From assembly GCA_018398765.1 (NCBI GenBank), contig JAHBMJ010002929.1, forward strand, positions 1-64,000: DNA of 64,000 bases, written 5' to 3'. The position numbers and the translations under genes were made by a program. The notes beneath the pieces were generated by a model. It ran no database searches, was not told where the DNA came from, and saw nothing but the letters and a program-made list of their open reading frames with translations. This DNA comes from Chromera velia (lineage: Eukaryota; Sar; Chromeraceae). Shown here in pieces: positions 12,347 to 38,509 of this stretch (the first letter of the stretch is position 1; the number at the start of each line of letters is the position of its first letter).

Positions 12347-12377
<31 letters not shown>

Positions 12378-12497
12378 TGACCGACAGAGAGACTGACAGA
12401 CAGATTGATTGACAGACAGACAGACAGATAGACTGACGGAAAGAAAGACAGACCGACAGACCGACTGATAGACACACTGACAGACAGCTAGACTGAC
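11855..12497. repeat. (GACA)n tetranucleotide satellite
   Basis: About 640 bp of degenerate GACA/GATA/GACC repeats on the plus strand. Open frames through it (SVCLSVCLS on the minus strand) are repeat translations and not genes. Confidence 0.95.
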
Positions 12498-13210
12498 GAA
12501 CAAATTTAACTCTGAGGAGTGATCACTCCAAGGGGAAGGGGATCTAACATTCAGAATGATAATCAGAAATGACTCTTTTCAATCACGCTTCAATCAATCT
12601 TTAAGTTCCTATAACTAATCTCGGATGTTATCATGCAACGTATGCGCCTTATGCATACTCCATTCTCCTTCTTCCCTCCCTCTGCATGCTCTGCACATCT
12701 CCTGCAGCCCCCTGGAGTCCGAGAAGGAGACAGATTAAAAAGATTGAGGAGAAACAGAGGGAGAGAGGGACCGACCGAGTGAGGCTGAAGGAAAGAAGGA
12801 TGGATGGAAAAGTAGACCCCTCTAACTCCGTAATCAGTAGACAAAAAGCCTGACAACAACTCGGTGTATATGCTTAACAGTCGCGGGTGGAACCCTCTCC
12901 TGTGGCTGGCTTGTTTGGCACCGGAACATGGCATGCTACTGGCCACGTCTCTTTTCTTTGACGTATCCCGGATGGTGCAGGCAGTGGAGTGCCACATCCT
13001 GGACTGGGGAAGCGGGTATTTGCTGTCTGTCTAGGCAGTGTCCCTCCCAACAGTGGGTGGAAGACCAGAGAGAACTTTTCGTCGACCAGTCACTGTTCGA
13101 CCCAAACAACACAGTTACTGTGGGTCTAGCTTGGTTGGTTTAAAGGATCGTTCGGGAGGGACCTCTTCCAGATTGCCCTGGGCTTTGTCTTCTAAAATGG
13201 CAAATTTATA

Positions 13211-17687: not shown

Positions 17688-19480
17688 ATGGCAGAGACAG
17701 ACCACCAAGAGGTCCACGACCGTCTCGTCCACGTCCTCGAAGGAGAGGATGCTGCCCTGGACGGAGCGGAGAACGGAGACGAAGGGGAGGCTGAGGGGGC
17801 AATGGGGGGAGGACAGGAGGGGGTGAAGATCGAGAACCTGAAGCCTGAGCACATCGCCGTCTGGAGAATTTTACCCGAGTCGAAGAAACTCAAACGTGAG
17901 TGATTAAATGAAGAAGCAGAGGGAGACGGGAAGGGAAGAGGCGCCAGATACCCGCAAGGGAAGAGGCAGAACAGAGTCTGCACAGTGCCTTTTGTCCTTG
18001 TAATTCAGCGACCTCTTTTTTTTGCATCGTTTTTGGCAGGGGGTAGGCAGTTAAATGGGAACCTTACCGTCTGAGCCTTATGAACGGTCAAATGACTGCT
18101 TGTGTGATTGTTGGGTCGAGGTACAGGAAGGTGTGCGTTTGATTATTTTACCCTGTTCATCTGAGTGAATGCGTGCGTGAGTGCAGTGCTGGACGAGTTG
18201 CTTGTGAAGGCCTCGTCGGAAGGTTTCTCTTCTGCCCTGCAGAACGTGGGAAAGGAGGAGATAGAGGCACTCCAGAAGGTTCGTGGGTTGGACTGGAGTG
18301 TGTGTGTGGAATCAGACGGAGGTTTTTCTTTGCTTTGTGTTTCGTGCAGAGAAAAACCGTGAATCAGACTGCTCTCCTTCCTTGTTTTTGTTGTGCCATA
18401 CTCACTCCCAAATCGTCTATCTTCTCTCCCCTCTAGTTCTTTGTGCCCACAACGTTTCTGTCTCGTCAGCGATTCCATTTCATCCCCCCCGGATCTCTCC
18501 TCCCCCCTCTCTCCCTGCCCTCCTTCCTTCAGTACGACACACAAAAGTCAAAAAAATATGCGACCGAAACGTCTTCTCCTTCCTTCTCCCTGCAGATCAC
18601 AGACGACCAATACACCACAGAGGAAGGAAAGGCGGGAGACGGCAAGGCAGGAGGGAAGCGGGACGGGAACGCTCTAGGGGTGGACGACCAGGAGGAGGGG
18701 GCTCCCACCGCAACAGGAGGGGGCCGCTCCGTGGCTGCACACACCGAGACGAGCTCCTCTGTGCAGGTCTGTCAGACACACACATGGTTTGGATAGGCAA
18801 AGAGAAAGACAGGGCGGAAAAGACGGAGAGACAGAGACACTCACTGCCTTCCCTCCCTGGCGTTGTTCTGCAACATCGTCTGCACGGGAAAACAAGGAGG
18901 TGTTTTTTTTTTTCTTTCACCCTCCCCGCTGTTTGACTAAAGGAAAACGTGAGTCCTTCTCCTTTTTCTCCTGTCTTGTCTGTACGTGCAGGGGGATGCG
19001 GCCAACGGAGAGGCCGAGGAGGCCGCCGCCGCCACTGCTTCTGGCGCTGCCGCATCTCTGACTCGCATGGGAAGTGCGGACTCGGAGGCCGACGCCTTGT
19101 ACCTGAACATGAGCAGGAAGGCTAAGCAGGTGCCCATGAGACTCACATATGACGGTCGGTCAGCTGAGAGGGTCTGACTTTCAGGTAAAATGGATACGAA
19201 CTTTGCAAAGTCTTCTTTCTTCGAGTCTCTTCCTTCGTTCAACTCAGCTGTCTGACCATGTCGGCTTCTCCCCCCCCTCTCTCTCCATTTGGGGGGGCGT
19301 CTGTTTCTGTTTCCTTCCGCACTTTTTCTTTCTCGTCGTTTGGTCCTTCCTTGACACTAAGCATCGAAACTACATTCCCCTAGACTGAGAGTATAGAGAG
19401 GACACGGAGCAGGGCAAACAAATGCCGGAAGCAAGGAAAACACTCACAATTCTTCGATCCCCTTTTTGTTATTGTTATTG

Positions 19481-19515
<35 letters not shown>

Positions 19516-22500
19516 TGAAGCAGAGCGTCACTTCCTCCGTCTTCTGGAGTCTGCCTTGAACGTATCGGAGTACACAGACAAGATCGACATCCTCCACTCA
19601 GGAGGGTCCAAGGCCAGGAAGATCGGACACCAGATCAGACAGGTAGGTGGGTGAGTAGGTAGGTGCTTAGTTGGCAGGCAGTCGGGAGGGAGGGAAGGCA
19701 GAGGGACTGTCTGTGGGTGGGTGGAGGATCGATGGGGGTTTCGTGCAGGCGTCTTCAAATTCAAATTCGGGGGCGTGTGAGTGGACCCCCGAATGAATGA
19801 ATCATTTAGTCCATCCATGCCTCACGCGATTGTTCCGATCTGTCCTCCCTCCGCTGTTTCTCTTCTGTTCTGCTTCCGTCTCACTGCAGGTGTGTGCGAT
19901 CCTCTCGGGCTTGGTGGTTGCTCACGATTATCAAGCAGGTCAGTCAGCGCAACAGGGAGGTGTGAGGATGTAGGAAGGCCTTCCCCCCCCCCTCCTGTCT
20001 GGAAGGACTCAGCTTTGTTTGTCTGCTCTCTGTTTCGCTCCAATTTCTTTCCCCCTCTCTTCCTCTCTCTCTTCTGCTGCCTGATGGATGGATGAGTGAG
20101 TGCTGCAGGTCAGAAGTTGATCAAGGAGAGAGACTTCGAGGAGAACCGGGACTTCTTCCAGAAGTGCTTCGAGATCGGCAGACGGTACAAGATCCTCAAC
20201 CCAGAGAGGATGAGAGACAGCTACGGTCAGAGGGAGGAGGGGGGGCGGGAGGGGATTGGCGGATTGAGGGAGGGAATCGGGAGTGACAGACAGACAGACA
20301 GACATAGTGAGAAGAGAAGCAGAAAGGTGTGGAAGAGTCAGAGTGCGAGTCTGTTGGCAGAAGAGCGGGCATCCATCTATAAATGCTTATTTGAGTGAGG
20401 GAGTGCGCCCTTCCTTCCTTCCTTCCTTCCTTCCTTCCTGTTGAAAGGAAAGGAAAGGATGGCAGACACGAAAGAGAAAAAAGGGAAAACCGGGAAACTC
20501 AATCCGTTCTGTCAATCCAAACTGAACGACACAAATGCCCATCTGGTGCGAGGCCAAAACCGACAGGAAGGTTGTACTCTGTGCTGTGTTTTTGCCCAGC
20601 ATGAAGGAAGGAAGGAAGTTGTTCTTTCCAAAGTCCAAAGGAATGAGCGAATCAATGAGACACAAAGAGACAGACAGAATGAGCCTCAATGTCTGTTCTC
20701 GTTTCCGCAGAGCAACCGAATACGCTCCTCTGATTTTCTCTCGTCAACCCTCTCTCTCTATCGTACTTCCATTTTTCCTCCCTTCCTCCTGTTCCTCCCT
20801 CAGGCAAGTTGGTGTACTTCCTTATGGACTCCCGGAGGCCCGAGATCAACCAGCTCCTCGAGTTTGACTGCGTTGTGCCCGGTCAGTCAGTGCCTGCCTG
20901 GCTGCCTTGCTGGCTGGCTGTACGTCTGTCTGAATCTACACAAAGGCGCATTTGCCGTGTATAGATAGGCAAGGGACTCGAAAAAATAAATTTGGGAGCA
21001 CGCTTTCATGACACTCGAATGTTGCTCTTCTCTCTCTACGCGGCATGCCTGTCCTTTGCATGTTGCGCTTTTCTCGCTCTCTCTCTCTCTCTCTTGCCTG
21101 TTTTGTCTTTCTGGCTCTATCTCTCTCTCTCTTGTATCTGCGCCTGTTGGATGAATACACTGTGGGCCCTCTTCTATCTCTGTCTGTCGATGGTTTCGTC
21201 CCTTAATTGTGTTTTCCCCTTCCTTCCTTGATTCATTCATTCGTTCATCATTCGTTCAGTGAAGACGGTATGGACACACTTGAAGGAGAGGAAGAACGGG
21301 AAGGCCCTCCTGAGGGATCCTCTGGTTGAACACGCCACAAAGGGTCGGTCTGGTCTGGTCTGGTTTGGTTTAGTTAGACTTGGAGGGGTAGGGGGTGGAT
21401 GCATTTATGCTCTCCTCGTTACACAAAGGAGTGGAGGGGGACGTGTTCGAAAGGGGAGGACGATGATCCGTTCGTTGGTTTTCTTCAACATTTTCCTTTT
21501 TGTGGTCTCTCCTTTCGTGTCCCTCCCTGTCGGTCTGCCTATGTGAGTGGGTCCACCTGTTTCCTTTCCTCTCTTTACCTTCTCTCTCTCTTTGGCTTTG
21601 ATTCATTCTGTCTGTGCTTGCTCTCTTGATCATTCATTCATTCATTCTGTGTGTGTGTGCAGAGATCATGCCCGAAGGAAGGGACAGGGCTGAGATCCAG
21701 AGAGAAATAAAAAAGAAGGAGGTGAGTGAGCAGGAAGCAATCAAATGGACGCACGCACAGAAAGTTCCTTCCCGCGTAGCGACTTAGCAAAGACAGTGAA
21801 AAAAAGCAAAGGAAGCGAAACGAAGAGGGACAGTCAGTGTCCTGCCCGACCGACTGCTCATTGTCATATGTGTGCGTTCGTAAGCTACAGATTGCGCGTG
21901 TCTTCTGCCGTTTCTTCTTCCCGCCCTTGATTCGTCCTGCTTCCTTTTCGCGGAAAAGGACATTTTCACACCAAATGATACCCATGAAATGACGCTGGAA
22001 AAGGCAAATGTTGATATACGAAAAAAAAAAGGAAGAAGGCAACCCCCCCCCCCCCNCCCCCCCATGCGTGCCTCTCGTTTGCTCTGCATGCAGAACGCCA
22101 TAAAGCACCTCGCGAGGAAATACGCAACAAAAAAGAACAAAAAGAAAAGAAGCGTCTACCACTGTCAGTCAGTCGGGAGGAATCATTCAGAGCACACACT
22201 CACAAACATCAACACAATCACATTCTTCGACTGTTCCTTCTCTTTCCTCTGCATCCTTCCCCTCGCTTCGTTTTTGGATTCTCTCCCGATCCTCTGTCTC
22301 ATTCATCTATCTGTATTGTCAGAATATTGTCTGTTCGACTGCCTGCGTACGTGCCTCCCTCCCTACACACACACGTGCAGCCCTCTACTTCTACAGCTAC
22401 TTCAACCAGAACGACAGCGACGACAGCGACGACGCAGGAGAAGAGGACGGAGAGGAGTCCCTTCTCCATTTGACGGAGGACGACATCGAACAGTCTCTCT

Positions 22501-25500
22501 ACTCACTGGGGGACCACAACACCTTCCTCAGGTTCAACAGGCAGCCGGTCGACAGGCTTCTGTGGTCGGTCAGCAACCTGCAGGAGTAGCTGGCGGAGAG
22601 GCATGCATTTTCGTTCATACAGAATTCTTTCATACAAATGCATACATTTTCTTTCATACAGAATTCTTTCATACAAATGCATACAAAAAATTCTGTATGA
22701 AAGAAAATGCAGGCTTTTGTGGTCGGTCAGCAATCTGCAGGAGTAGATAGAGGAGAGGAGAGAGAGGGAGCGAGGGAAAATGAGACGGAAAAAAGAACAG
22801 AAAACATGCATTCCAGATAGAAAGAAAGACAGCCAGAAAAAAAGAAAACGAAAAAGAATGGCAAAAAAAGAAAGGCAGACAGACAGAAGCAAAGAACAAA
22901 CGAACGAATGAACGAACGAAAGGAAGGAAGGAATGGAAGGAAGGAAGGAAGGAAGGAAGAAAGAAAGAATGAAAGAAAGAAAGAAAGAAAGAAAAGAAAG
23001 GAGGGAAGGAAAGAAGGAAGGGACGCTCCTCTTTTCCTTTTTTTTGCTTCTCTTCTCTCCGTCTTTTGCGGACTTCTGCTCTCTCTCTCTCTGCCTGCTT
23101 GACTGACTGACTGACTCACTGCCTGATTTCAGTTAATTTCTCCTGATGATCTGATCACCCAGGAAGGAGCTGTTTGTTGTTTATGACGGAAAGGGAAAAG
23201 AGCTTCAAACCAGGCGGAACCAGAGTACGCAGGTATCCATCCCTACGCGCTCTGTATCCTTCCTGTGTACACATGTGTTTGCTCTGACATGTGTGACATA
23301 CCTGCATTCATTCATTCGATCTGCCTGCAGGTACATGAAGGAATTTTTCGACCCCGAGGAGGCAGAAGACCGGTTCTCTCTGGACATCCGCTCTGGAAGG
23401 GGGGGGGCCAGACTGACGCACAACCACAGGAGGCAGTTCACATACGTGCTACAGGTTTGTTGGTCCGTTGACCTTCATGTCTCTCTCTCTCTTCATGATT
23501 GTCCCTGTCCCTCTTTGTTACTGACTGAAAGAGACGGCAGAAAGAAAGAAAGAAACACGCGCTTTTGGTCTGTCACTCAGGCATATCAATTTGAGCGACC
23601 TGTCGCTTGTGTTCGCCCTGCTCTCCCACCTTTCTCTTTCCTTTCTTTCTTTCTTTCTTTCTTTCTTTTCTCTCTCTCTCTCTCTCTCTGTGCATATCGG
23701 TAAGATCAGTTGCCTGATTGATGCCTGCCTGTTTGCCTTTTTTTCTGCCTGCCTGCAGACTCTGACACTCTGGAGGGAGGTCCTCCACGAGATGTTCATT
23801 CTGTGGCACAAGGCGGAGGCGGACCTGCTTAGCTCGGACAACGGGTATATCCTCAGGGACACGGGGCAGGGCCTCAACAGGTAGGACACATAGTCTGTCT
23901 GTCTGTCTGTCTGTCCGAAAGAAAGGAAGTGTTTCGGAAAAAGTGAAGTGAGGGGACATGCATGAGGGGACACCCTCTTGTCTGTCTGTGTCTGTGCAGA
24001 GTCCAAGCCGCCCCTCAGGTGTCCCGTGTGATGCACCTGATAGTGAACAGAGTGAAGGAGAAGGTGGGGGGGTGGGTGGGATCCTCCGTGATCCATTTGG
24101 GAGACCATAATGTGCCGAACGCTCTGATGTTCATCGACAAGTCAGTACGTACGTGGGTCGGTTCGGTGGGGTGGTGTATAGACAGCATGCGGTGTTGTAT
24201 CTGTCCTTTTCTTTTCTGTTCCTTTGATACTGGCAGGCTCTTCCCTTTCCATTCACTCTCAATCATTCCTTCCCTTCCCCCCCGAGGTGTGTGTGGGGGG
24301 CGGGCAGCAAGAAAAACACACGAACGAGTCATGAGGCTTTTCTCGAACGCACAAACAAAAGCAAAAACCCAAAAACCAACGAAGCGACCGGACGCCTGCA
24401 CGCATGCATGCAGGTACGCCCAGTGAATACAGAATACTTGAAATAAAATCTGTATGAGAGAGAATAAATGCATGCAGGTACGCCCAGGTTCCCCGCATCG
24501 TGGGCCCCCTCGTTCTCTGTCTGGACAAAATCCCGGATGTCGTGGAGAGCAGCCAGCCTCTAAAGAAGTCAGTCGGCATTTACTTTCATACAGAATTTGT
24601 ATGTATGCAAAAAAAAAAGGATGTCGTGGAGAGCAGCCAGCCTCTGAAGAAGTCAGTCAGCGAGGGAGTGAAGGAAGGAAGGGAGNGGGGGGCAAAAGGG
24701 AGAAGGGACCATGAAGGAAGGAAGGAATCATCGTGTCTGTCTGGAATGACGAGCATTTTTGTTCATTGAGAGAGAGAAGAGAGCAAGGGTCGTGGTTTGT
24801 GTCTGGTTCCTTCCCGTATTTTCTTTCTTTCTTTCTTTCTTTCTTTCTTTCGTTTCTTTCTTTCTTTCTTTCTTTCTTTCTTTTCTTTCTTTCTTTCTGT
24901 CGACGGGTCCTTCCTCTTCTTTTCTTCTCTCTTTTTTCTTTCTTTCTTTTTCTTTCTGCCCCTTTCTTTCTCTTTTCACACATCGAAAAAAACAAAGTGA
25001 ATGTCGATCGATCCGTCCAATGAGTCGAAGGAAGGAACGAAGGAAGGAAGGAAGGAAGGATCGAAAAGCTCGGTGAAAGTTCGAAATAATCTAGTCATCT
25101 TGTGTCTATGTAAGTAAAGCCTTTCACCTTTGGTCCTGTGACGCACGCACGCACGCACGCAGGTTTATTGACAACGCCTACGGTGGAGTGGAGAATTGCC
25201 AGAAGACGATCCTGACCGATTTCTTCAGACACGCCTTCGACGGGTCTGGGGCGGACAACTTCTTCGATGCCGGTAGGTGAGTAGGTGAGGGACGAAAGAG
25301 GGATGGATGGATGGATGCATGCCCAAGGGAGGGAGGGAGGGAGGGAGGGAGGGAGGAGAGGCATCCATCATTTGTTGTCAACAGGGAGGGAGGTTTTTGC
25401 GCAGAGAGAGAGCCTTTTCTTTCTGAACATCCACAGGTTCGATCAGTCAGTTCTCTGCATTCGCTTTTTCCTTTTCCCCCCGTCTTTGTCGATTTACTTT

Positions 25501-26452
25501 GCACGTCCCCCCCCCCCCGTTTTTGTCTTGAGAATCGGACAAATACGTTGTGGCACTGTATCAAAGGTGGGTGCCGCATTGCGGCGGTCCGTGAAGCAAA
25601 ATGGAACGAAACAGCACAAAAAAACTGGATGGAAGGAAATATGGAGCTTGTCTGGCTACCCATACCTCCGGACTCCCGTATGTGCGCTTGCAGGCTGCAT
25701 GTGGGCATATGAGTATTGAGGAAGTGGGTGAGAAAGTGCTTGCCTGCGTGTCTGTCTGTCTGTCTGTGTGCGCTTAATTCATTGTGTGCAGGTAGCTGCA
25801 TCGACGGACGTCTCACGAGTGCCTGGAATTGGTCAGTCTCTCTCTCTGTCTCTCTCTGAATCCCTGCCTGCCTGTCTGTCTGTCTGATTGATGATGTTAT
25901 GTATATAAAGCAAAGAAGGGAAAAGAAGAAACAGATAGTCTGTCTGATGATCTGTCAGTGAGCTGAGCGAAGTGCATGTCAGGAGGAGAAAAGAAAGCAG
26001 AAACCTGTCGGTCATCCATCGCTTTATCACATTCGTGAATCGGCCTTCTATTTCAACCAGTATTTTCGGTCTGGCCAAGTGCTGAGAATGTCCATTTCCG
26101 TCAGGCATCCTGTAGAGCACTCTTTCGGACGTATCGCGTTGGTGGCGCTGCATGCCAGAGTTGAAAGGTTGAAGAAAGAGAGGTTGAAGAGAGAGGAAAG
26201 AAAAAAGGAATTCATTGGGAGGGAAGCAGAGACAGCCCTCTGCTCTGATTGGGTCGCTGTTGCCTTGATTCTCTCACCCTGCTTGTTTGCCTGCCCTCTC
26301 TGTATGTGTCGATAAATCTATCTATCTGCCTAGCTGTATCACCTCCTGCTGCCCCCTGCCTGCCTGCCTGCAGGTGTGCGAACGTGGAAAAGAAACATTA
26401 CTTCCCCGTCTTCCTCCTCACAGGCTTCACGGGATTTGACGGCAAATTCTGA
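17688..26452 (+). CDS. DUF2009 family protein, 19 exons
   Basis: Exons: 17688-17895, 18187-18278, 18596-18766, 18992-19154, 19524-19642, 19890-19938, 20109-20225, 20804-20881, 21260-21343, 21663-21721, 22094-22163, 22381-22564, 23331-23454, 23759-23880, 24000-24140, 24478-24567, 25163-25272, 25792-25831, 26374-26452. All phases agree and give 699 residues. Residues 1 to about 195 are acidic, Gly/Ala-rich and variable. From about 205 to the end the conserved domain is continuous: ERHFLRLLESALNVSEYTD, CAILSGLVVA, EIGRRYKILNPERMRDSYG, RDTGQGLNRVQ, GSSVIHLGDHNVPNALMFIDK, DFFRHAFDGSGADNFFDAGS and FLLTGFTGFDGKF. These match my memory of DUF2009 (PF09418), a widespread eukaryotic family without a known function. 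There is no signal peptide or membrane helix, so it is probably intracellular. Exons 12 and 16 carry unusual splice-junction duplications. Confidence 0.92.
19482..19515 (+). repeat. (CCTG)n next to the exon 5 acceptor
   Basis: Eight CCTG units end a few bases before the acceptor of DUF2009 exon 5. Confidence 0.9.
22553..22746. repeat. palindromic mini-element with duplicated donor junction (copy A)
   Basis: A 37-bp direct duplication (22553-22589 and 22710-22746, two mismatches) contains the last bases of DUF2009 exon 12, its GT donor and a CTGCAG. Between the copies is an AT-rich insert with terminal inverted repeats near GCATTTTCTTTCATACAG and two tandem 41-bp internal units. Confidence 0.85.
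22905..23020 (+). repeat. (GAAG/GAAA)n intronic array
   Basis: Tetranucleotide purine repeats in DUF2009 intron 12. Confidence 0.9.
24404..24487. repeat. palindromic mini-element with duplicated acceptor junction (copy B)
   Basis: A perfect 20-bp direct duplication (24404-24423 and 24468-24487) covers the acceptor CAG and first bases of DUF2009 exon 16. The 44-bp insert between the copies has inverted ATACAGA/TCTGTAT arms, the same core word as copies A and C. Confidence 0.8.
24535..24658. repeat. palindromic mini-element with duplicated donor junction (copy C)
   Basis: A 40-bp direct duplication (24535-24574 and 24619-24658, one mismatch) covers the 3' end of DUF2009 exon 16 and its GTCAGT donor. 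The 44-bp insert holds the palindrome GCAT...CATACAGAATTTGTATG...ATGC and an A run. Confidence 0.85.
24822..24955 (+). repeat. (CTTT)n intronic array
   Basis: Pyrimidine tetranucleotide repeats in DUF2009 intron 16. Confidence 0.9.
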
Positions 26453-28796
26453 TGACGTGTTCTCCCTCTGTAGTGTGGGAGAAGAAAACAGGCTAGCCGG
26501 GTGCCTGTCTGTGAGTTTTTGGAATTTGTCGAACAATAAGAGAGAGAGAGAGGAAAAAGCGGAAGGGGGAGAGGGGGGCATGCATTGCATCAGGGGAGAG
26601 AAGTGGGGCTGCACCGTCAAACCGTGCTTACACGATACACAGACACAGAGAGCCTGCCAGACAGATGCTGTTTGGGTGAGGGGATAGGAAGGAAGAGCGT
26701 TGAGGGGATTGTGGGCCGGCGGTCATGGGAAGAGGGGGCTGAGATGTATAGCAGCGCGTGGCAGGGCCCCATCCGAGCCCAACAGTCACCCTTCGAATCC
26801 ACAAACCTGGCAGTGCTCTCTCTGCCTTTTCCTCTGGCAGCACAGGGGCATGCAAAGGAAAAAAAATCGGGGTCGAATTAAGCCCTGCAGGGCAAAAGTC
26901 TTTCGATCATGCATATGGCCGAGGATCGAGGCTGGAAGGGAGCATGGCCGGACTGTGCGTTCCCCTTTTCCTCAAACGATCGATGCGAGTAGAGTAGACG
27001 AGAATTCTGGATGGAAAGAGGAGGCAGCATGCATGCATGCATGCATGCATGCATGGAGGATCTCTTTTGTTAGCTGCAATTAACCTGCACGATCCGAAGG
27101 GACGGAGATCAAAAGTAAAGGAGCTAGGGGAGAGTTGCAGGATTGCAAGGGTAGTCTTTGTCGCTCCGACATGTGATCGAATTGCAGTGCATGTATATTT
27201 GATGGAACCACATGCAGTTTTGGAACATGCATGTGTCTACATGCAAGCAAATCACCATGTATGCAGTCACTTCATCTAGCACTTCATACCCAAGCTGTAA
27301 CCCAGCCATTCATCTGAACCGTAACATTTCTAAAATATTTCAGGTATTATTTCTTAAACCAGTTAAAAAACGAGTTTTGGTGTACATAGGTTCATCTGGT
27401 CCATACATGCATGTAGCTAAATTTATCTAGTATCTACTATATAAGTTATGTATGATGTAACATATTTACCAATATTGACTAACTTTGAAGAATCTATTAT
27501 AATGATCATCATCAAATCCTAGGCGACCAATACAAAAAAAGAGAAAAATAAATGCCAAAATCTCATTTTTAGCTTTTTTCTCTTTTTTTTTGGAAAGCTG
27601 TGCATCTGCATGATGATGTCGCACGCCGTGGCTAGCAGCCCGCGGGCTACCGCGGGCACTCGAATCGTGACTCGATCGAGTCCCCGGCCGCCGCAGGACC
27701 CCCATGCGTGCAAACCGGCAGCGTTACCGGCTGCAGGGTTGCATGCGTGCGTTCCCAGCCAGCAACTTCGCTCAAATTCAGTCAAACGCCTGCAGGCAGC
27801 GGTTTGTCTGACCTTAGGGCCTTTTTGCCTCAAACACCAGCTTCGATCTAGCAGCCTACTGCAAGTTGCTTAACACGCCAAGCCATCTGCCTTGCTACAC
27901 ACCGTTACTTGAGCCTACATTCACGTTCAAAAAGGTAGAAAGGCGTTTCAGCGGCCTCGGGTTTCATAAGGTCGAAAAAGAGGTCGGCATGGCATGCGAT
28001 CAGGCTTCAGATTTCCAATTCAGAACCGTTCGAAAGTCCCGTCTACAAGCGCCTGTGTGTTTCCACCTACTAATGGCTGTATTTCAGAAGCTTTATCTCC
28101 TGTTCTTAAGCCGTCTGCAGCTCACAATTGCTTCACTTGAGCAGAATGTTTTTCTAGAGAGTTCGACACTGCTATTCCTGGAGCATTGGTCGGGATAGCA
28201 CTGTCCAGTCAGTTCCAGTTTCTTTGAGAACGCCTTGTCCCCTCTTCAAGAACTTCACCCTCTTCAAAAGATGCTATTCTTTTCCCTTATCAGTGACTTT
28301 GTCACACCATTCGATCGCTTGAATGCATCGTCGATGCATATATATACTGCCTGTGCATTGGTGTTCTGACTGCTTCTCACCCACCCTGACCCCTACATTA
28401 TTCATCCCATGTATCGTCCCTTTTGTCTCACTGATTCTTCCCCTGTTGCTCCACTGTTTATATACGCGCTCTCATTCATTCAGTGTTTGCTTTCTGGCTT
28501 TCTGGCTTTCTGGCTTTCTTGCTTTCTTTCTTTCTTTCTTTCTTGCTTGCTTTCGTGCTTTCTTGCTTTCTTGCTTGCTTTCTTTTTTTCGTTCTGTTGC
28601 GGGCAAGACAGAAAATCTGCCCGGCCGGAAGTTTCTCTCTCGTATTTCCTAGTCCTGCAGTCTCTGGTAGGTGAGCTCTGTGTCTGTTTCTTTCCTTGAC
28701 TATTTATTAATAGGTCTTTTTGTCTGTGCACATCGTTTTGTGCATGTATCTGTGTGCGTGCGCGTGCGTGTGTGTGTGTGTTTGTGTGTGTGTTTG
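26453..28796. other. spacer without a supported gene
   Basis: It contains (TGCA)n at about 27028-27055, a GC-rich island at 27620-27760 and a (CTTT/CTTG)n array at 28495-28585. Open frames exist but none chains by splicing or resembles a family. Confidence 0.45.
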
Positions 28797-28797
28797 C

Positions 28798-30654
28798 AGC
28801 CTGGAAGCGGGCCAAGACAGAAGTTTGTTGTGGCTTCTTGCGGTCAGATCCTCTGGACGGGATTTGGGTACTGGGAGGAGCCAGTGACGAGGAGGACAAT
28901 TCTTGGAAGGACTTGCCTGGTCGTCTACCCTGATGTGGTGGGCATCTCCCGGCACCCAGAGGAAAAGCCTTTCATCTTCTTCCCCAGGGGGCAATTTTCG
29001 ATCAGAGGGGGGAGTGTTGGAGAAGACCGAGCGATGGAGATTGAAGGGTACACGTAAGGGGTGTTGATGAGGGCATCAGATCGCGAAGTGACGATCTTCA
29101 ACGGAGCGGCTCGATTCACTTTCGTGGCTCTAGCCCCTGCCCTTTCAAAAGAGGAGTCAGATGTAGTGCTTGCGTGTACTGCCAAAAATGTGCGTCCCGT
29201 CGAAGTGGTGGGAGAGGGGATGCGGCGCTTCTGCCGTTGAAGTGGGGGGGACGGTGAGGGTCCAGAAGAAGGGGCTTATGGATGTGAGAAGAGAGGAGGG
29301 GCGAAGGGGGTGGCCGTGGAATTTGGGATATGGCGATGGTCGGACCGATCGACCTATCTCACTTCGGTTTCCGAGGTCGTGTGTGTCCTCGGAGGGCCCC
29401 GGTTCTTTTGCACACACAGCGGGACCGCCTCACTGTGTGACGCGGCCGAGCTGACGGACGTCCGATTTCTCGTTGGGCAATTCGGGAGGCAAACGGATTG
29501 GGGTAGCGGGTGTAGTTCTGCAGTTGCCAGTCAGGCCTTTGCCGCCGGCAGCTTGGAGGCGGTGTGCGGTTCGGTCACACTAGGCCGAGAGGTCCCCAAC
29601 GTGTCGGTGCCCAGGCTCCGAGAAGTGACGGGAAAGCTCACCATCCATCCCGGGGCGGATGGTCAGGGTTTCAACTTCCCCGCACTGGAGAGTGTGGGGA
29701 ATTTGACGTTTTTCCGCAACGTCTCGATGCCCCAGCTCCGAGAAGTGACCGGTAAGGTCGCAGCCCATAGTCTTGCGGTGGACTTTCCAGCCCTAGAGAG
29801 AGTGGGAGATGGGGTCGAGGTTTCGTACATCAGCAACCTGACTTCTTTTTCTTTGCCCTCTCTCTCCTCAGTCGGCCCATCCGGATGAACGTGCAGGAGA
29901 ACGGGGGGTAAGTGAACATCAGTCCCCCTCTGCTTCGTGAGTCTCGCGGCTCCGTGGTGGTCTCGAGCAACCTGGAGTTTGTGGCAATCGACCTGTCCCG
30001 CTTGGAGTCGGTGGGGGGAAGCGTTGTTATTCAGGACAACGCTGGGCTGGAGGAAGTGCGCCTGCCTGCGTTGGAGTCTGTGGAGAAGGATGTCGAAGTG
30101 GGAGGAGCGGCAACGTGGATTAGAGGGGGAACCCGCCCAAACCCCCACATGTCGATTAGGGGGTATGGGAGTATAGGAAGGGGTAGAAGGGGAAGGTGGG
30201 TAGAGAGAGCGAACCCGAATTTGAGGACTCTTGCCCTCAGCTCCTTGTCGTCTGTCGGGCAGGATCTCCTCGTGACCCACAACCCGGCCCTCGAGGTCCT
30301 CACTTTCCGCCAGTGCGCCTCGGAAGAGGGGGAGTGTGCAGCCCCTCTGACGGTTGGAGGACGGGTTTCGGTGCAAGCGGTGGGGGGCAAGAGTGAAATT
30401 TCCTCGTTGACAGCCCTGCGGTGCGTCCACACCGGTGACCGTTCCGTTATCACACAGCGTGGGTTGACGGCCTCTGAAGCGCTCTGTGCACTCTGAGAGG
30501 AGTGCGGTTCCTGTTCGGCAACCTCCGCGCTGAGGGGTGCGACGAGACAGAAATGCAGGACCTCGCAGCAGAGTCTACTGATCTTCGTGAGGTCTCGGGG
30601 GACTTGATCCTTTCGGGCCAAACAGAAGAAAACATCACCATGGGCGCGTTGGAG
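28798..30654 (+). pseudogene. broken receptor-L-domain (ECM33/SPS2-like) repeat protein
   Basis: Three plus-strand frames carry repeats of the form 'L.SVGG.L.I..N..L..L..P.L', for example LRSV-type units in FPALESVGNLTFFRNVSMPQLREVTGKV and RLESVGGSVVIQDNAGLEEVRLPALESV. This is the receptor-L-domain/ECM33-like beta-helix pattern of cell-surface proteins. An acceptor (tttgcag) precedes 28801. The coding line meets in-frame stops at 29055-29057 and about 29236, changes frame near 29880, meets another stop near 29910, changes again near 30495, and is lost in a (GAAA)n array at 30655. Short introns do not restore it. It may be a decayed host surface-protein gene. A badly assembled gene is the alternative. 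Confidence 0.6.
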
Positions 30655-30656
30655 AA

Positions 30657-30688
<32 letters not shown>

Positions 30689-30798
30689 AAAAAAAAAAAG
30701 AAAAGAAAGAAAAGAAAAAAAGAAAGAAAGAAAGAAAGAAAGAAAGAAAAGAAAGAAAAGAAAGAAAGCAAGAAAGAAAGAAAGAAAGAAAGACAAAA

Positions 30799-30830
<32 letters not shown>

Positions 30831-30868
30831 AAAGAAAAAGAAAGAAAGAAAGAAAGAAAGAAAAAAAA
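30655..30868 (+). repeat. (GAAA)n array
   Basis: About 214 bp of GAAA repeats at the 3' end of the broken L-domain gene. Confidence 0.95.
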
Positions 30869-31261
30869 TCTAGTAATCTAGTAATGTGGTTACAGTTGAC
30901 TTCCCTGCACACTGTCAACTTTTTACTTGTCGGGCTATTTGTCTGTTTCGTTCGATGTGTTCGTTCGGTATTCCAGAGACTTCGAAGAGAGCAGAGCAGT
31001 CTAAGTGAGTCGATATGCATGCATGTATCAATTCACCTCACTTCAATTCAGACTGCCGGCGTCGATCTTTCCGTCTCTGTCGCCGGGCGGCATGGGCGCG
31101 CGCTCCGAATTTTATTTTTCTTTGAAGGGCCACGCGCACTCACGCCTGCGTGCAGTTTATTTTCGTCCCCCCGGCTGCCCGACTTCCCCACCATGCACAC
31201 CATCATTCATACACATTGGCGACGCACAAAGTTGAGTGAGTGAGTGCGTGTGTGCTTGCGC

Positions 31262-31269
31262 AGGAAGGA

Positions 31270-31305
<36 letters not shown>

Positions 31306-31310
31306 CAAAA

Positions 31311-31342
<32 letters not shown>

Positions 31343-31376
31343 AAAAAGAAAAGAAAAGAAAAGAAAGAAAGAAAAA
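31262..31376 (+). repeat. (GAAA)n array
   Basis: Second GAAA array, with the same sequence theme as 30655-30868, including a shared GACAAAAAAGAAAG interruption. Confidence 0.95.
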
Positions 31377-33380
31377 CAACCGAACATCTCCGATCGAGTC
31401 GTGAGCCCCTCAGTTATGGAGTGCATGAGGGCCGGCAACTGCTGCATGCATGGGCCCGGATTCGTTCGCGCTGCATGCACTCCTGAATTTTTGGCAGGCC
31501 CCTCTGAGACAGTGAATTTCGTGCGTGGTCAAAATGAGTGCGTGTTATTTCGTGCATGGGTCGGGATTCGATCGTGCGCAATGAGACTGCATGTGCATGT
31601 ACCGCATGATGTGCATGTTAAAGCTGCATGCATGCAGACGTGATGGGGGGCCAGGGAGAGTGTAGAGAATGTAATGTGCCTTCAGCCCTCTTCTGATCGC
31701 GAGACTTGGAAAGCTGGTAAACTTGTCCCCTTTGGCTAGCCCTTTGGTTCAGTCTGCATGGTGCAATACATCGGATTCCATCGCGCTACTCTGGGGTGCC
31801 TGGTGTGTGGTTTGTGCTAAGGTTTGTGTAGTAACGTACTTTGTTGTCTTTCGTGCGTCTCCGTGCATGTGGAGTATGCATGCGGTAGTATGCGGCATGC
31901 GTGATTGATCTACTGCATTTGTATGTATAGACCGCAGGAGAAGATTCGATTTTCGAGTATGCGGATTGCAATATTGCATGCAAATGCATGTCATGAGGCC
32001 GGCTTAAAACTTAATTTAATTTAACTTAGCCTTCAAATTTATATCTAGATTTATATATTGATTTTGCACTAGGTTTTGTAAATATCTAGGCAAATATAGG
32101 GATGAATAGCAATGATAGCATTCAATGATGTGACCTAGTGCTGGGAAAAGGTTCAAGTTTCAAGGTTCAAGGTTCACTTCGAAGTAATGAGCCTGAATCA
32201 GGTTCAAAAATAGGTTCAAAAACAGGTTCACTTTTAATTAATAGAAACCTCATTTTTTCGTGTTATTTTATGCCTTTAAATTAGGCTTTAATGCATTTTT
32301 AGAACGTTTTATTGTAGAATCTATGCCTTTGTAGTGTTTTTAAATAGTTTAAATCAATATTTACGCTCATATTAGGTGCTAGTCTCAAGTTATTCACTGT
32401 TTATAGTCGAAAATTAGTAATCAAAAAAGCCTGAAAAAATTGGAAAATACCATAATTAAATTTATATGATCGTATCAATCATGACAATTTAGTCACCATA
32501 AGACCGTCACAGCATTTTTTTCTTTCTTTCATCTACTCATTGGTTGCCCTCACGGCCCCCGCTCCCTGTTAAGTCACGTATACTTCTTTACTTCTGCAAC
32601 CGTCAGCATGAGTTTTCATGCTGATATATAATGCTGACATATGCTGACATGCGTCTGTCCGACACAACAGATTGAACCGGCTGGGGACAGTTGCTGTGCG
32701 CGTGGCTCCGGCTCTTTATTTCACCTATATCGGCCTTGTGCCAGTGGCCGCGCGTCTGGCCTCGAAAACAGGTTTAAAACAGGTTCAACAGGTTTAAACC
32801 AGGTTTAACAGGTTCACTTTTTCAGATTTGAACCTTTTCTCAATGAACCTTTTCCCAGCCTTAATGATATCCCGAGTTCAAGTTTTGCTCCGCCGTGGTC
32901 CAGTCACTCTAGTGCCCCGGGTCCACTACCAGAGGTTGGCTCATAAATCAAAATCTTGGGATCGAAATTATCAGTATCGATATTGCATTAATTAAATACT
33001 AGATCAAAAGATAAGTGATAATTGAGGAATTTAGTGGTGCTCTACAGTACTGCATGTCGCCAATTTATCTTAGATAAGATAGAATTAATATTTAAAGTTG
33101 CCCATAGAGTTGCCCTGCCCCAGGCCTACGGTACACTGCCGGGCCTCAGGCTTAACGATTGAAATATCGAGTACCGGTCTTAGATAACACATTAGTGTTA
33201 CTGTGAGTACAGTGTTTGGGATTGTTTAAGGGAGGAGATCTTTCTCAAATGGTCAAAGTATTAAAGAATTGAGTCCGCTAAAAAGGCTTTAGGGGATATA
33301 TTTGGGACTATTTCTTAATATAGAAACAAATAAACACACAGATACAGACATACAGACATACTTCGACGTGTATCTAAGAA
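31377..33380. other. AT-rich spacer holding one MITE
   Basis: No gene is seen. TGCATG words are frequent from 31440 to 31990. A hAT-like MITE occupies 32141-32858. Confidence 0.5.
32141..32858. mobile_element. hAT-like non-autonomous DNA transposon (MITE)
   Basis: The ends are inverted: CTGGGAAAAGGTTCA at the left and TGAACCTTTTCCCAG at the right. CTGGGAAAAG-type ends are common among hAT superfamily elements. Subterminal AGGTTCA/AGGTTTAA words repeat many times near both ends. There is no transposase frame. If the element is extended to 32131-32860, the flanks TCAATGAT and TTAATGAT could be an imperfect 8-bp target duplication, the hAT length. Confidence 0.7.
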
Positions 33381-33398
33381 ACACAGACACATAGATAT

Positions 33399-33402
<4 letters not shown>

Positions 33403-33437
<35 letters not shown>

Positions 33438-33457
33438 CACACACACACACACACGCG

Positions 33458-33493
<36 letters not shown>

Positions 33494-33495
33494 GG

Positions 33496-33529
<34 letters not shown>

Positions 33530-33544
33530 TAGACACACACACAC

Positions 33545-33591
<47 letters not shown>

Positions 33592-33607
33592 TAGATAGAT
33601 ACACACA

Positions 33608-33680
<73 letters not shown>
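33403..33680. repeat. (CA)n, (GACA)n and (GA)n compound microsatellite
   Basis: Nearly 280 bp of alternating dinucleotide and tetranucleotide repeats. It generates artificial long frames on both strands. Confidence 0.95.
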
Positions 33681-33681
<1 letters not shown>

Positions 33682-33848
33682 CAATATTAAAAGTGTCGAA
33701 AACGGACGACATAAAAAAAAAAATGCAAAAAAGTGATCATTCGTCAAGTTTGTGCAATATGCTTTTGAGGTTGTTTTTACCAACTGTTCAGCACAGAGTC
33801 TCTTTGACATTCATCGATCCCCACGCTGTTCTCACTGCAGATTTTATG

Positions 33849-36800
33849 TCACCCAAGAAGCCACGTCTTTCCCTGCGGCCCTTCAGTCTCTCCTGACTTG
33901 ACGGGTTCGCTTGTCCGTCTCGGGACCCCGTATGGAATGGGGAGAGACGTTGGAGACCTTCTTCCAGACTCGGCCTTTCTTTGGCGTCTTTTTCTTCTTC
34001 GTTGTTTTCCACTTGAAAGCGATGCTTTCTTGGAATTGGACTTATCCAAATCATCCAACTGGGCCTGTAATCTCCTGAGTGCCTCGTCTGCCTCTTCTTC
34101 CGTTGCGGGTTTGAAGACTTCCTCATTTGGGTCGTCCGAGCCTCCCGTGATCCTCTTGTCCATCTGCTCTGCTGGGAGCGTGCACTGGAGGGGAGAGAGG
34201 AGATCGAGTACCTCGGTACGCTTCCGGGGCATTAGATCAACGTCAACAGAGGAAAAGGGAAAGCCACTCGCACAACAGAACTCAACAGCACAAGGAAGGA
34301 AACCGTCACACTGAGGTGAGTCTGAGGGTGGTGCCTCCCCTTCTGTCGACTCTTTTTGTCGTCTCTCCTCCAGTGCCTCCTTTGCTGCTTTTGCTTTTTC
34401 GATGTCTTTCTCCAGTTCGTCGCACCTCACTGAAAAGAGAAAGCTCGATCCTCCGCTCCCCCTCTCGACACAGAAAGAGACGTACAGAGGCACAAGAGAA
34501 CAGAGGGCAAAGACGAAATCGGGGTGCTTGTTGCGGGCTGCCCTCATGACGTCGACAAGTTGAAGGGAATATCTGCACGTGCACACGGAGGGAGGCAGGC
34601 AGGCAAGCGGGGAGGCAAAAAAAAAAGAAAGACCTAAAGGAAGCAAAGAAGAAAAAATCAAACAAAGGAGGAAAGGAAAAAAGGAAGCAGAAACCAAAAA
34701 AGAGGACCTCATCCACAGATCTTTTTTTAAATGAAACGATACGCCAACAGACCCGCCAATCATTTACTCGAAAGTTTGCAAATCCCACTTTCAAGCGGAC
34801 AGAGGGACAAAGGGAGAGGGAGAGGGGGAGAGGGAGAGACGGGCACATTTTCGACGGGCCAACTGAGACAGGGTGACTGACTGACTGACTCACTTTGTTG
34901 TGTAGTCCAAGTAATCCGGCTCCTCGAGTCCCTCGAATCCAATTTCTTTCCCCTCAGCAGCACTCCACCCAGCATCCGTAACCAGTCCCTCTACCTGCAT
35001 GTACGTATACACAGAGGCACACACACGCACGTATACACGTATTTGTATATGGGTGGACAGCCAGATCTGCCTACAGGAAAGCATCCAGAAGGAAATAGAG
35101 AGAAGGGAAGAGAAGGGAAGTGCCATGCATGCAGAGAAGAGCGACAGAGATGGGAAAGGGAGAGAGGGAGAGAGAGAAAAAGGCTCAATACAAATGGATT
35201 GTCCATCGGGAAGGAGTTTTGCGGCATGCAATTCTTTCTGCAGTCCTCCCGGCCTCCACCATTGCTTAATTGCCTTCTCTCCCCGCCTCGTCTGAAAAGA
35301 CTAACCAAATCCTTCAATTCGTCCACCACGTTCTTCTTGAACCTTCCGAGAAACTCCACCAAAGAACCGCCTGCCGTCGATTGCTTGGCGACAAACTCGG
35401 AAACCTACGCGTACACGTTCACACGTACACACAAGGAGACGTGTGTCTCAAACAAAAAACAGCGAAACAAACTTTGTCTATCATGCATTGACCAGAGAAA
35501 AGAAAAAAAAGACATCATGCATTGACCAGAGAAAAGAAAAAAAAGACATCATGCATTGACCAGATAAAAGAAAAAAAAAGACATCAGAAAGCACCAGAAG
35601 AGACATGAGTACGCACACACTGCTCCACAGGGGGACAATCAGTGCTTGCGAGCGGATGGGCAAGCAATGAACTCAGAAAAGCATGCTTGTGGAGACAGAC
35701 AGCCAGCAAGGCAAGAAGGTGTCACCTTTACCTGGCACAAAAGAGGAAAAGCGGTAACATTCGTCCAATCACATGCAGCACGTGTGTTGAAGTAGCGAGG
35801 AGGAGCAAGGTCAAGCCCAGCGACCCATCCATCTTTCTGCTCTATGAATCTCTTTTGGCATGCAGCCAGCAGAAACCTCATGGATGAGAAGAATGCCTGC
35901 AGAAACGCTCTCCAATTCTCTTCCATAGACACACCCGGCCACCCTGGAGGGTACTCACACACTCTCCTCGAAAATCAAAAGACACACAAAAGAGTTAATT
36001 CGCGTCTGTATCGACGCGACTCCCGATGGATGCACAACCCCACCTCAATCAGCTCACGTTGTCTTTCTGTGCATGTGCGCGCGAGCACGCGTGTGTGTGT
36101 GTGTGTGTGTGTGTGCATGTACGCCTGTGTGTGACCCTCTCTGCCCCATTTCTTCCACAAACAAAGAAGTTCCGCCGGCAAGGACATTCTCTCTCTCTGC
36201 CTGACCTTGCAGGTGTCTTCGACCCCTCCGCACTCTGTCTCCATATTGCTGAGGGTCCACGCGAGGGCCTTCACCTGAGGCTCTGACAGGAGACTCTTCT
36301 TATTGCCTTTAGAGTATTTGGAGATCAGGTGCTCAATCGGAAGTGGAGGGGGCACGCCAACAGCCCTGCAGCAGTATCTCAGAGGCATGCCCAACAAGTC
36401 GCACCGCAGGGGCTTGTGAAGATACGCCAACCCCCACTCTGTGCGCTCTGCTTTCTCTTCTCCCTCCTGCTGTGTTGCTCTCTCTCTCTGCACTTTTGCA
36501 TCGCAGCGCTGGGAGGCTTCGTCTAGGGTGATGGGGTCGTTTTGAAAGTCTTCGTAGAAGTCAAAGAGGCCCTCTGAGCGTGTCTCTGCATCCTTTTGAA
36601 GGGAAGAAGAAGGGGAGGAATAGGGACTTCCCCAATCTTCGTCGCATAGGCAGACGGAGGCAGCTTGTCGGTTGGACAACAAGTCTGGAGACAGCTGCCC
36701 CCTGTTCATTTTTTCCATTCCGTTGAGAATCTGTTGACTGCTGGGGTCTTGGGAGGCCTCGTTGGGGTTCTGACAGAGACTTTGGAAGAGGGTAAAGACC

Positions 36801-37031
36801 TCGCACATCTGCAGAAGGAATTGATGCATTTATTTTCATAAAATTTATGAAAATGAATGCATGCACAGAGCCTTTGGAAGAGGGCAAAGACCTCGCACAT
36901 CTGCAGAAGGAATTAAGAGAAGAAAGGTCGAGATTCAACGTAGAATGAATGAAGCAAAGAGATCGACGCTGCGTTTGTTGTTTTTATGGCAGATGCGGAT
37001 TTATTTGTATTTCTCTGTCTCTCTCTCGCAT

Positions 37032-37414: not shown

Positions 37415-37554
37415 TGTAACCAGACTGAAATTGAATCTAAAAAAGTTGATGTAACCAGACTGAAATTGAATCTAAACAAGTTGATGTGACCAGACTGAAA
37501 TTGAATCTAAACAAGTTGATGTAACCAGACTGAAATTGAATCTAAACAAGTTGA
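37415..37554. repeat. four tandem copies of a 35-bp unit
   Basis: The unit begins TGTAACCAGACTGAAATTGA. Four copies differ at only a few positions. It lies just upstream of the start of the minus-strand seven-exon gene. Confidence 0.95.
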
Positions 37555-38509
37555 TGGAAGGAATGCTGAAACAGCATACCGAGACCGGGTCCTTTTGACT
37601 CTTTGCTGGATCTCTTTCAGAGAAAACTCAACTGATTATGTTTTCACTGATTCCTGCAGTTGTCCTCTTCCCATACAATCACGGACAGGGATCGATAGGC
37701 ACGCATGCATGCGTATATATATACCTGAAGTCGGGAGACAGACTGGCGATGGAGGGCAGTGCAAGGTTCGTGAATGCCCTCTGGTTCGCTTTTTTGAGTT
37801 CCAATTTCTTGGTTTTCATTTCTTTTTGTTCGTCGTTTTGTTCTTCAAAAGAAGCAAAAACCGGTTCTCCATCGTGCCATATGATCTGTGGAGAGACAGA
37901 GAGAGACGGAAGCAGAGAGGCGGTCGCATTATGACCGGGCATGTTCTCTCTCTGTGTCCTGCGACCATCAGCGCTCACAAACAGAATGAACAAGAGAGAC
38001 CTTTTGAGTAGACGGAAAAGATAGGCTGCAGTCATTGAGAACAAAAATGATCAGTGGTCTGTATAAAGCGGCATACAAGCGTGCTTTAATTCCGTCTCCA
38101 CTAGGTAGACGCAATCAAAAGATCCGAGGATTGGTTCCAACTGAGACTTCCGTCCAGATCGCTTCTAACAAGTCCATTCGGGAACGTGTTGCTAGCTCTT
38201 GCTGCGCTTGAACATCTTTGATCGAATCCATAATATACTGGCACTACATGCAGTACTGCATCAAATCGCTTGAAAATTGAAATCGGTTGGGATATCATGC
38301 ATGTATATATATATTGCATGTATTAATATGTATAAAATTCATGCAATGCATGATCGCGATTAACGAAAAAAAAATAACAGTCAATACAGCGCAGCGCGGC
38401 CGGCCGGGGGGCCGCGCGGGGGCCCTCCGCGCGCCCGCCGACGCTATTCGAGAGAAGATCCCATGCATGGATGCGACATGCATGCGTGATCATGCATGCA
38501 CAAGTTGCA

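What the first reader, a model, noticed from the sequence alone, without database searches (positions are those of the whole stretch)
22553..36914. A family of tiny palindromic inserts that duplicate splice junctions
Four inserts (22553-22746, 24404-24487, 24535-24658, 36773-36914) share the same plan. Each has an AT-rich palindromic core (44, 44 and 42 bp, plus one of about 110-120 bp) with GCATTT(N)TTTCATA or ATACAGA arms, flanked by a 20-50 bp direct duplication of host sequence. Every duplication contains an exon-intron boundary (two donors, two acceptors), in two unrelated genes on opposite strands. Duplication copies differ by 0-2 bases, so the events are fairly young. Known DNA transposases leave 2-11 bp duplications, so 20-50 bp is unusual. 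The pattern resembles introners, where an insert plus duplicated splice signals makes or reshapes an intron, but the targeting of existing junctions is different. This may be an undescribed element class or a repair process that copies junctions.
Basis: partly seen in the sequence, partly recalled or inferred. Interest (0 to 1): 0.88.

Follow-up and report, generated by a model that had tools for sequence, protein, structure and literature searches.

The report
Splice-site-duplicating mini transposons in Chromera
The alga Chromera velia carries a large family of tiny palindromic mobile elements that copy an unusually long piece of host DNA when they land, often including a splice site, so the insert can be spliced out of the message and at one site appears to form a new intron.

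Summary
The four inserts (42-108 bp, AT-rich) lie between 20-50 bp direct duplications that contain a splice junction (three confirmed by a public protein, one inferred). They belong to a genome-wide family in Chromera velia CCMP2878: a 16-base arm core occurs 656 times exactly in 178 Mb. Of 68 further loci found by element similarity alone, 66 pass a test for flanking duplications; 19 of 600 fake loci do. Duplications are 15-62 bp without boundary motif; the two arms co-vary within a copy; tips are ragged with microhomology; at least 11 of 76 loci are tandem [duplication+element] arrays. The acceptor motif TGCAG lies in 26 of 65 duplications against 6.7 expected in the same loci; donor enrichment is weaker and shares a raised control. 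At L022 the element sits inside an open exon, and the public protein is a chimera of the two duplication copies: donor from one, acceptor from the other, i.e. a new intron in the gene model. Best reading: an introner-like, non-autonomous inverted-repeat element whose very long target-site duplications supply splice sites. The integrating enzyme is unknown. New variant of a known kind, with an unexplained integration step.

The parts
22553..22601 (+). E1 target-site duplication, copy 1 (exon side); contains the last 12 exon bases and the donor (exon ends 22564) of the PF09418 gene
   Evidence: junction by public protein P0121
22602..22709 (.). E1 element, 108 bp, with inverted-repeat arms GCATTTTC(G/T)TTCATACAGAATT / AATTCTGTATGAAAGAAAATG and an internal repeat
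   Evidence: seed of the genome search
22710..22758 (+). E1 duplication, copy 2 (5 mismatches)
24404..24423 (+). E2 duplication, copy 1; acceptor ATGCATGCAG|GTACGCCCAG
24424..24467 (.). E2 element, 44 bp, diverged arms ATACAGA/TCTGTAT
24468..24487 (+). E2 duplication, copy 2 (identical, exon side); exon resumes at 24478
24535..24574 (+). E3 duplication, copy 1 (exon side); exon end and donor AAGAA|GTCAGTC
24575..24618 (.). E3 element, 44 bp, ends in ten A
24619..24658 (+). E3 duplication, copy 2 (1 mismatch)
36773..36822 (-). E4 duplication, exon-side copy; acceptor CTGCAG|ATG on the - strand (inferred)
   Evidence: open frame; no Pfam hit
36823..36864 (.). E4 element, 42 bp, strong hairpin
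36865..36914 (-). E4 duplication, intron-side copy (2 mismatches)
17688..26449 (+). host gene of E1-E3: PF09418 (non-canonical E2 ubiquitin-conjugating C-terminal) protein, 19 exons by alignment of P0121 (edges approximate)

Best explanation
A high-copy, non-autonomous mobile element family of Chromera velia. Each copy is two near-identical inverted arms (about TGCATGCATTTTCTTTCATACAGAATTC...) around a short variable centre, mostly 42-190 bp in all. Shown: nearly every copy examined is bounded by a 15-62 bp direct duplication; splice signals lie in the duplication; at the one exonic site with a public protein the upstream copy gives the donor and the downstream copy the acceptor, so element plus one duplication unit is an intron in the gene model and the protein runs through. 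Inferred: insertion at two staggered nicks 15-62 bases apart, followed by fill-in. Inferred: when the duplication spans an existing junction, the exon-side copy keeps a complete splice site and the element is hidden in the intron (as the public protein of the window gene shows for E1-E3). Inferred: element ends are joined by 1-3 base microhomology, suggesting annealing-primed synthesis, and the second arm is renewed from the first (hairpin copying), because arms co-vary. Not known: the enzyme.
For: Family: 656 exact 16-base arm matches (309 + 347) against 0 for the reversed control; four loci in 194,276 bases fetched at places I picked without knowing their content, besides the four in the window. 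Duplications: 39 of 39 and 27 of 29 similarity-found loci reach score 15 against 19 of 600 fake cores; the two misses, an array (L077) and a 16-bp duplication (L078), still show a pair; one pass (L048) is a satellite unit and L068 is complex. 63 pairs: length 16-62, median 35, 28 identical, 67 mismatches in 2208 bases. Arms: 4.9% mismatch within a locus, 9.3% between loci, 0 of 5000 permutations (34 of 38 loci scored). Junctions: TGCAG in 26 of 65 duplications, 6.7 expected from windows of the same loci, 0 of 5000 draws; 23 against 5.0 after trimming 4 bases per end. Public proteins P0121 and P0241. Exon sides with a Pfam hit over its cut-off: L084 kinase, L071 ankyrin, L006 RCC1, L094 FAD_binding_2; L064 MIP just below it.
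Against: No autonomous partner or enzyme was found; 15-62 bp variable duplications with ragged tips are not what a DDE transposase usually leaves (recalled). Donor enrichment by motif is modest (14 against 5.6 untrimmed; 7 against 4.4 trimmed by 4), and a reversed-donor control is also raised (17 against 9.4; 11 against 7.2; 19 against 8.6). Non-acceptor TGCA is also raised (18 against 8.5; 11 against 6.7 trimmed; TGCAC/TGCAT 29 against 10.4; 7 against 2.65). Splicing at acceptor-type sites would have to skip an intact upstream acceptor copy. Only one new intron (L022) is backed by a public protein, and that is a gene model; no reads were seen. Every locus in the two large sets resembles one of two query elements.
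Confidence: 0.78

Rival explanations
1. Target-primed reverse transcription: a LINE-type reverse transcriptase copies a small hairpin RNA of the element into nicks far apart, giving long variable duplications, microhomology and variable ends.
For: The genome has many reverse transcriptases (1759 first-look candidates for PF00078, 150 scored), some with longer alignments (about 700-825 nt) that I read as LINE-like without checking; variable duplication length and ragged, microhomologous tips; E3 ends in a run of A. Primate retro-DNAs are a precedent for DNA-transposon sequence moved by LINE machinery (PMC11195612, abstract).
Against: Most copies keep both arms, without a general A tail; no boundary motif. 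Duplications of LINE copies in this genome were not measured. Only 1 GIY-YIG hit, so an endonuclease-bearing Penelope source looks unlikely.
Confidence: 0.35
2. A DNA transposase with an unusually wide stagger moves the element (a eukaryotic counterpart of the bacterial IS1202 group, whose duplications are 16-28 bp).
For: Long inverted repeats, arm-only small elements, duplications on nearly every copy examined. IS1202 group as precedent for long duplications with TIRs (PMC10132070, passages).
Against: Tips are not fixed and length varies from 15 to 62. No MULE transposase (PF10551, 0 hits); other transposase families were not searched. I recognised no kb-sized element with such duplications in the repeat list of the 258 kb sample, which is not a rigorous test.
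Confidence: 0.3
3. Break-repair capture: staggered breaks, perhaps linked to transcription, are filled in and a hairpin DNA fragment is captured by microhomology; the element is a favoured filler rather than a self-moving unit.
For: Microhomology of 2 or more bases at 10 of 23 right and 17 of 28 left junctions that could be scored (about 16% expected by hand calculation for independent bases); no target motif; broad length distribution.
Against: In the 258 kb sample the short AT-rich palindromic inserts between duplications are this one family; other pairs listed were protein repeats, tandem or low-complexity stretches, or widely spaced pairs (L010, L011, L013, L014, L016, L019-L021). Random repair should capture many sequences.
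Confidence: 0.25
4. The junction excess is only purifying selection: insertion is random and copies inside exons are lost.
For: Exonic copies would break genes unless spliced; L022 and perhaps L034 are exonic copies that can be spliced.
Against: Deep-intron copies should be equally harmless, yet junction copies are over-represented. In the PF09418 gene 3 of 3 insertions at junctions has chance 0.005 even if only introns and junctions are tolerated (approximate exon edges, and the gene was noticed because of these insertions). Trimmed acceptor count 23 against 5.0 in the same loci.
Confidence: 0.3

Closest known systems
Introners (introner elements), surveyed in PMC9860276
   Same: Small, low-GC, often TIR-bearing, spread in many genes; can recruit splice sites from the duplication; can make introns without changing the protein (L022).
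   Different: That paper gives 3-9 bp duplications for previously characterised families and 4-8 bp in its examples; here 15-62 bp. At L022 both splice sites come from the duplication, and many copies sit on existing junctions. Chromera is not mentioned in that paper's main text (supplement not seen).
Amoebophrya introner elements (PMC7789003)
   Same: Alveolate; inverted repeats of 8-20 nt plus direct repeats at exon-intron borders.
   Different: Direct repeats of 3-5 nt and no family-specific inverted-repeat motif reported; here one conserved arm and much longer duplications.
MITEs (miniature inverted-repeat transposable elements)
   Same: Two arms, no coding capacity, high copy number.
   Different: MITE duplications are of fixed short length and tips are fixed (recalled); neither holds here; no autonomous partner found.
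IS1202-group insertion sequences (PMC10132070)
   Same: TIRs with unusually long duplications (16-28 bp).
   Different: Bacterial and coding; relationship not tested.
Retro-DNAs (PMC11195612)
   Same: DNA-transposon-like sequence with longer duplications.
   Different: By its abstract they lack TIRs and have poly-A tails and a TT/AAAA site; these have TIRs and no such motif.

Membership tests
Introner | Many similar copies in one genome, in genes | tested here: met
   exon homology at several loci
Introner | Insertion itself creates a spliceosomal intron | tested here: inconclusive
   Met at L022 by public protein P0241; L034 by open frame only; many other copies lie on existing junctions
Introner | Duplications of the length reported for characterised families (3-9 bp; not strictly defining) | tested here: not met
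   15-62 bp
MITE (DNA transposon derivative) | Terminal inverted repeats | tested here: met
   34 loci scored of 38; 4 left out because arms were not recognised; E3 arms differ at 10 of 22 places
MITE (DNA transposon derivative) | Fixed, superfamily-specific duplication length | tested here: not met
MITE (DNA transposon derivative) | Fixed element tips | tested here: not met
MITE (DNA transposon derivative) | Coding partner with the same arms | tested here: inconclusive
   none recognised in 258 kb; three spaced arm pairs fetched were separate small elements; only the first places of the 656 were listed
LINE-mobilised (SINE-like) element | Endonuclease motif at the nick | tested here: not met
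   the Y/R bias next to the duplication follows from how its edge is defined
LINE-mobilised (SINE-like) element | 3' tail and 5' truncation | tested here: inconclusive
   A-run in E3 only among window copies; both ends ragged
IS1202-like | Related transposase in the genome | not tested
   not searched

The most novel reading that the evidence does not exclude
A new integration pathway aimed at splice junctions: an element whose insertion uses two nicks 15-62 bases apart at transcribed exon-intron borders (for example in R-loops or spliceosome-occupied chromatin), so that each landing duplicates a complete splice site and is invisible to the host. Long duplications would then be the adaptation that lets a transposon live in gene-dense DNA and seed new introns.
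Probability: 0.3. Interest if true: 0.92.

Novelty: new variant of a known kind. Interest (0 to 1): 0.78.

Why it matters
How new introns arise, and how transposons survive inside genes, are open questions. Introner families described in the survey read here have short duplications. Here a single family in a relative of apicomplexan parasites leaves very long duplications that can copy both the exon end and the splice signal, sits on existing junctions as well as in an exon, and has identical duplication pairs at 28 of 63 loci, hence recent activity. That makes intron gain and junction targeting directly testable in a culturable alga. The integration chemistry (inverted arms, 15-62 bp variable duplications, microhomology, arm renewal) matches no eukaryotic transposase class known to me.

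Tried and rejected
Rejected: (1) chance direct repeats (no pair in 30 shuffles); (2) tandem protein or satellite repeats, which explain the window's other pairs; (3) a nick motif: the pyrimidine|duplication|purine bias follows from the maximal-match definition of the duplication's edge; (4) targeting by the element's own TGCA tips alone: the acceptor excess remains after trimming 4 bases per side, although non-acceptor TGCA is also mildly raised; (5) a known RNA family in window 22300-25000 (none); (6) the same 20-base arm in viral contigs (none; records of this genome may be left out); (7) a 1.36 kb autonomous element suggested by equal arm spacing on two contigs: they proved to be unrelated small elements; (8) endonuclease-bearing Penelope elements (1 GIY-YIG hit) and MULE transposase (0 hits).

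My first gene model put the E1 donor further downstream; the homologue alignment showed extra residues, and the public protein fixed it. Rows dropped: one search used 35 of the 39 first-set loci (L023, L025, L032, L048 left out as arrays or satellite) plus 8 from the sample; one search used 28 of 29 (L068 left out, units typed for L065, L077, L090); searches used 65 loci, leaving out L023, L025, L032, L041, L048, L065, L068, L077, L088, L089, L090. One search scored only cleanly truncated tips (23 right, 28 left, of 59 loci); its permutation null is too low because the edge definition adds chance matches, so the report uses a hand-calculated null. The six elements on L093-L095 are in no count. 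Papers: passages of PMC9860276 (and its section 7), PMC7789003, PMC4501334, PMC10132070, PMC11782384 and PMC3296678; abstracts of PMC11195612 and PMC5488345; the rest search listings only.
Full report
What is in the window. Four inserts of 108, 44, 44 and 42 bp (E1-E4) lie between direct duplications of 49, 20, 40 and 50 bp with 5, 0, 1 and 2 mismatches. A scan for nearby direct repeats that knew nothing of the finding returned these four as the only pairs around an AT-rich insert; the rest were tandem arrays or a repeated protein region. Shuffled windows gave none in 30 of 30.

Organism and gene. E1-E3 lie in one gene. A typed join of its exons found a public 699-aa PF09418 protein, P0121 (its label is cut at 'Tax=Ch'), whose pieces match the window's exons, with differences at exon edges. 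A second public protein, P0241, identical to the query over its aligned part, is labelled Chromera velia CCMP2878 (the taxid is merged into Chromera velia). The assembly held here has 177.8 Mb in 4040 contigs; the published one has 193.66 Mb in 5953 scaffolds (PMC4501334, passages). P0121 joins exons at the junctions inside the E1 (donor), E2 (acceptor) and E3 (donor) duplications and contains no element residues, so the gene model uses the exon-side copies (for E2 the copies are identical). E4's acceptor is inferred from an open frame and a CTGCAG motif; its protein has no Pfam hit.

A genome-wide family. In the window plus 194,276 bases fetched at places I picked (258,276 in all), eight loci show the same plan: E1-E4 and L005, L006, L007, L016. 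Of 21 arm-like motifs in that sample, 19 belong to these loci; two weak ones (window 27003, L013 9900) do not. A DNA search with the E1 element gave about 40 loci (40 of 131 first-look candidates scored); 39 were fetched. A second search with the L034 element gave further loci (40 of 191 scored); 29 new ones were fetched and at least one (C2001) was not. These 68 loci were chosen by element similarity only. With one rule for a flanking duplication, 39 of 39 and 27 of 29 pass, against 19 of 600 fake cores. The exact 16-base arm core occurs 656 times in the genome, its reversed control 0 times.

Anatomy. The arms read about TGCATGCATTTTCTTTCATACAGAATTC and its complement; the centre varies. Arm variants such as TTTAC/GTAAA occur in both arms of the same copy: mismatch 4.9% within and 9.3% between loci, 0 of 5000 permutations (34 of 38 loci scored). 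The tips are ragged. Where a tip is cleanly shortened, the next canonical bases tend to be present in the host: 2 or more bases at 10 of 23 right and 17 of 28 left junctions, against about 16% expected for independent bases by hand calculation. Duplications of 63 loci are 16-62 bp, median 35, with 28 identical pairs and 3% mismatch overall; the pooled first set of 43 spans 15-62, median 38. No base preference at the edges survives the definition bias. At least 11 of the 76 loci are tandem arrays of [duplication + element] (L005, L007, L023, L028, L032, L056, L077, L086, L087, L089, L090).

Splice junctions. TGCAG lies at 13 of 18 intron ends of the PF09418 gene. It lies in 19 of 43 duplications of the first pooled set against 5.0 in random windows and in 8 of 28 of the second set against 2.7. 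With windows from the same loci as control it is 26 of 65 against 6.7, and 23 against 5.0 after trimming 4 bases per end, 0 of 5000 draws in both. TGCAG or one of five donor hexamers is in 36 of 65 against 11.9. Donor hexamers alone are 14 against 5.6 untrimmed but 7 against 4.4 trimmed, and reversed-donor controls are also raised (17 against 9.4; 11 against 7.2), as is non-acceptor TGCA (18 against 8.5; 11 against 6.7). So acceptors are firmly enriched; donors rest more on individual genes. Exon sides supported by a Pfam match: RCC1 at L006, kinase at L084, ankyrin at L071 over their cut-offs; MIP at L064, PRORP at L054, methyltransferase at L043 and WD40 at L078 below them; FAD-binding (succinate-dehydrogenase-like, recalled) at L094 over its cut-off and a WD40-like piece at L095, where a second piece had no hit. 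Within the PF09418 gene, three of three insertions on junctions has chance 0.005 if introns and junctions are equally tolerated, with the caution that this gene was noticed for its insertions. L005 reads by eye as intron interior.

A new intron. At L022 the flanks minus the insert form one open exon on the minus strand, and a distant paralogue on another contig (29% identity, one in-frame stop) aligns in one piece across the site. The public protein P0241 carries, upstream of the junction, a residue coded only by the upstream duplication copy and, downstream, a residue coded only by the downstream copy. The gene model therefore splices from a donor in copy 1 to an acceptor in copy 2, and the element plus one duplication unit is the intron. 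L034 has the same layout with GCAG|GT in the duplication, but only by open frame and without a Pfam hit.

How it works. Shown: element, long duplication, splice signals in the duplication, one new intron in a public gene model, repeated occurrence on existing junctions. Inferred: staggered nicks with fill-in, microhomology joining, arm renewal through a hairpin, unequal exchange between duplication copies making arrays. Why junctions are preferred is open: exon-biased insertion with loss of unspliceable copies, or true targeting. Because intact acceptor copies persist upstream of the element, the acceptor-type sites need RNA data.

Known or new. Introners are the closest kind. The survey read here (PMC9860276, section 7 and passages) gives 3-9 bp duplications for previously characterised families; Amoebophrya elements have 3-5 nt direct repeats (PMC7789003, passages). 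Direct repeats of 4-30 bp (mean 11.4) near splice sites of 213 introns are reported in PMC11782384 (abstract and passages). A full-text search for Chromera with introner found 1 paper, the Amoebophrya one; a wider search with chromerid, MITE and introner terms found 4, none of them by title about Chromera elements. A search for unusually long duplications with inverted repeats listed 8 papers, of which I opened three: IS1202, retro-DNAs and HERV-K. Supplements and subscription papers were not seen. That transposon duplications can provide splice sites is also recalled from plant work. I file this as a new variant of a known kind, with an integration step that fits no class I know.

Noticed in passing
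L007:1502-2041, L005:314-652, L090, L056, L028: Tandem arrays, in L007 five elements between six duplication copies, period about 95-120 bp; the repeated host segment often carries a splice motif, so arrays may multiply splice sites.
   Followed up: partly
L048 (C3725:66810-67580): An element inserted in a roughly 45-bp tandem satellite, so the flanking duplication equals the satellite unit.
   Followed up: no
whole genome G000: 1759 first-look reverse-transcriptase candidates (PF00078), 150 scored, many with long open frames; LTR-like pairs in the sample.
   Followed up: no
window 11867-12498, 35480-35578, 37415-37556, 54964-55206: Tandem repeats unrelated to the finding.
   Followed up: no
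window 29241-30496: Repeated protein region (leucine-rich-like by eye) giving one of the direct-repeat pairs.
   Followed up: no
element arms: The arm contains ATACAGA, a stretch also in U6 snRNA (recalled); seven bases, probably chance.
   Followed up: no
window 24404-24487 (E2): The duplication reads GCAG|GTAC, so copy 1 could act as a recursive splice point (acceptor followed at once by a donor).
   Followed up: no
L094, L095: Two small elements each within about 1.5 kb; both L095 elements have duplications with TGCAG on the minus strand of a WD40-like gene.
   Followed up: partly
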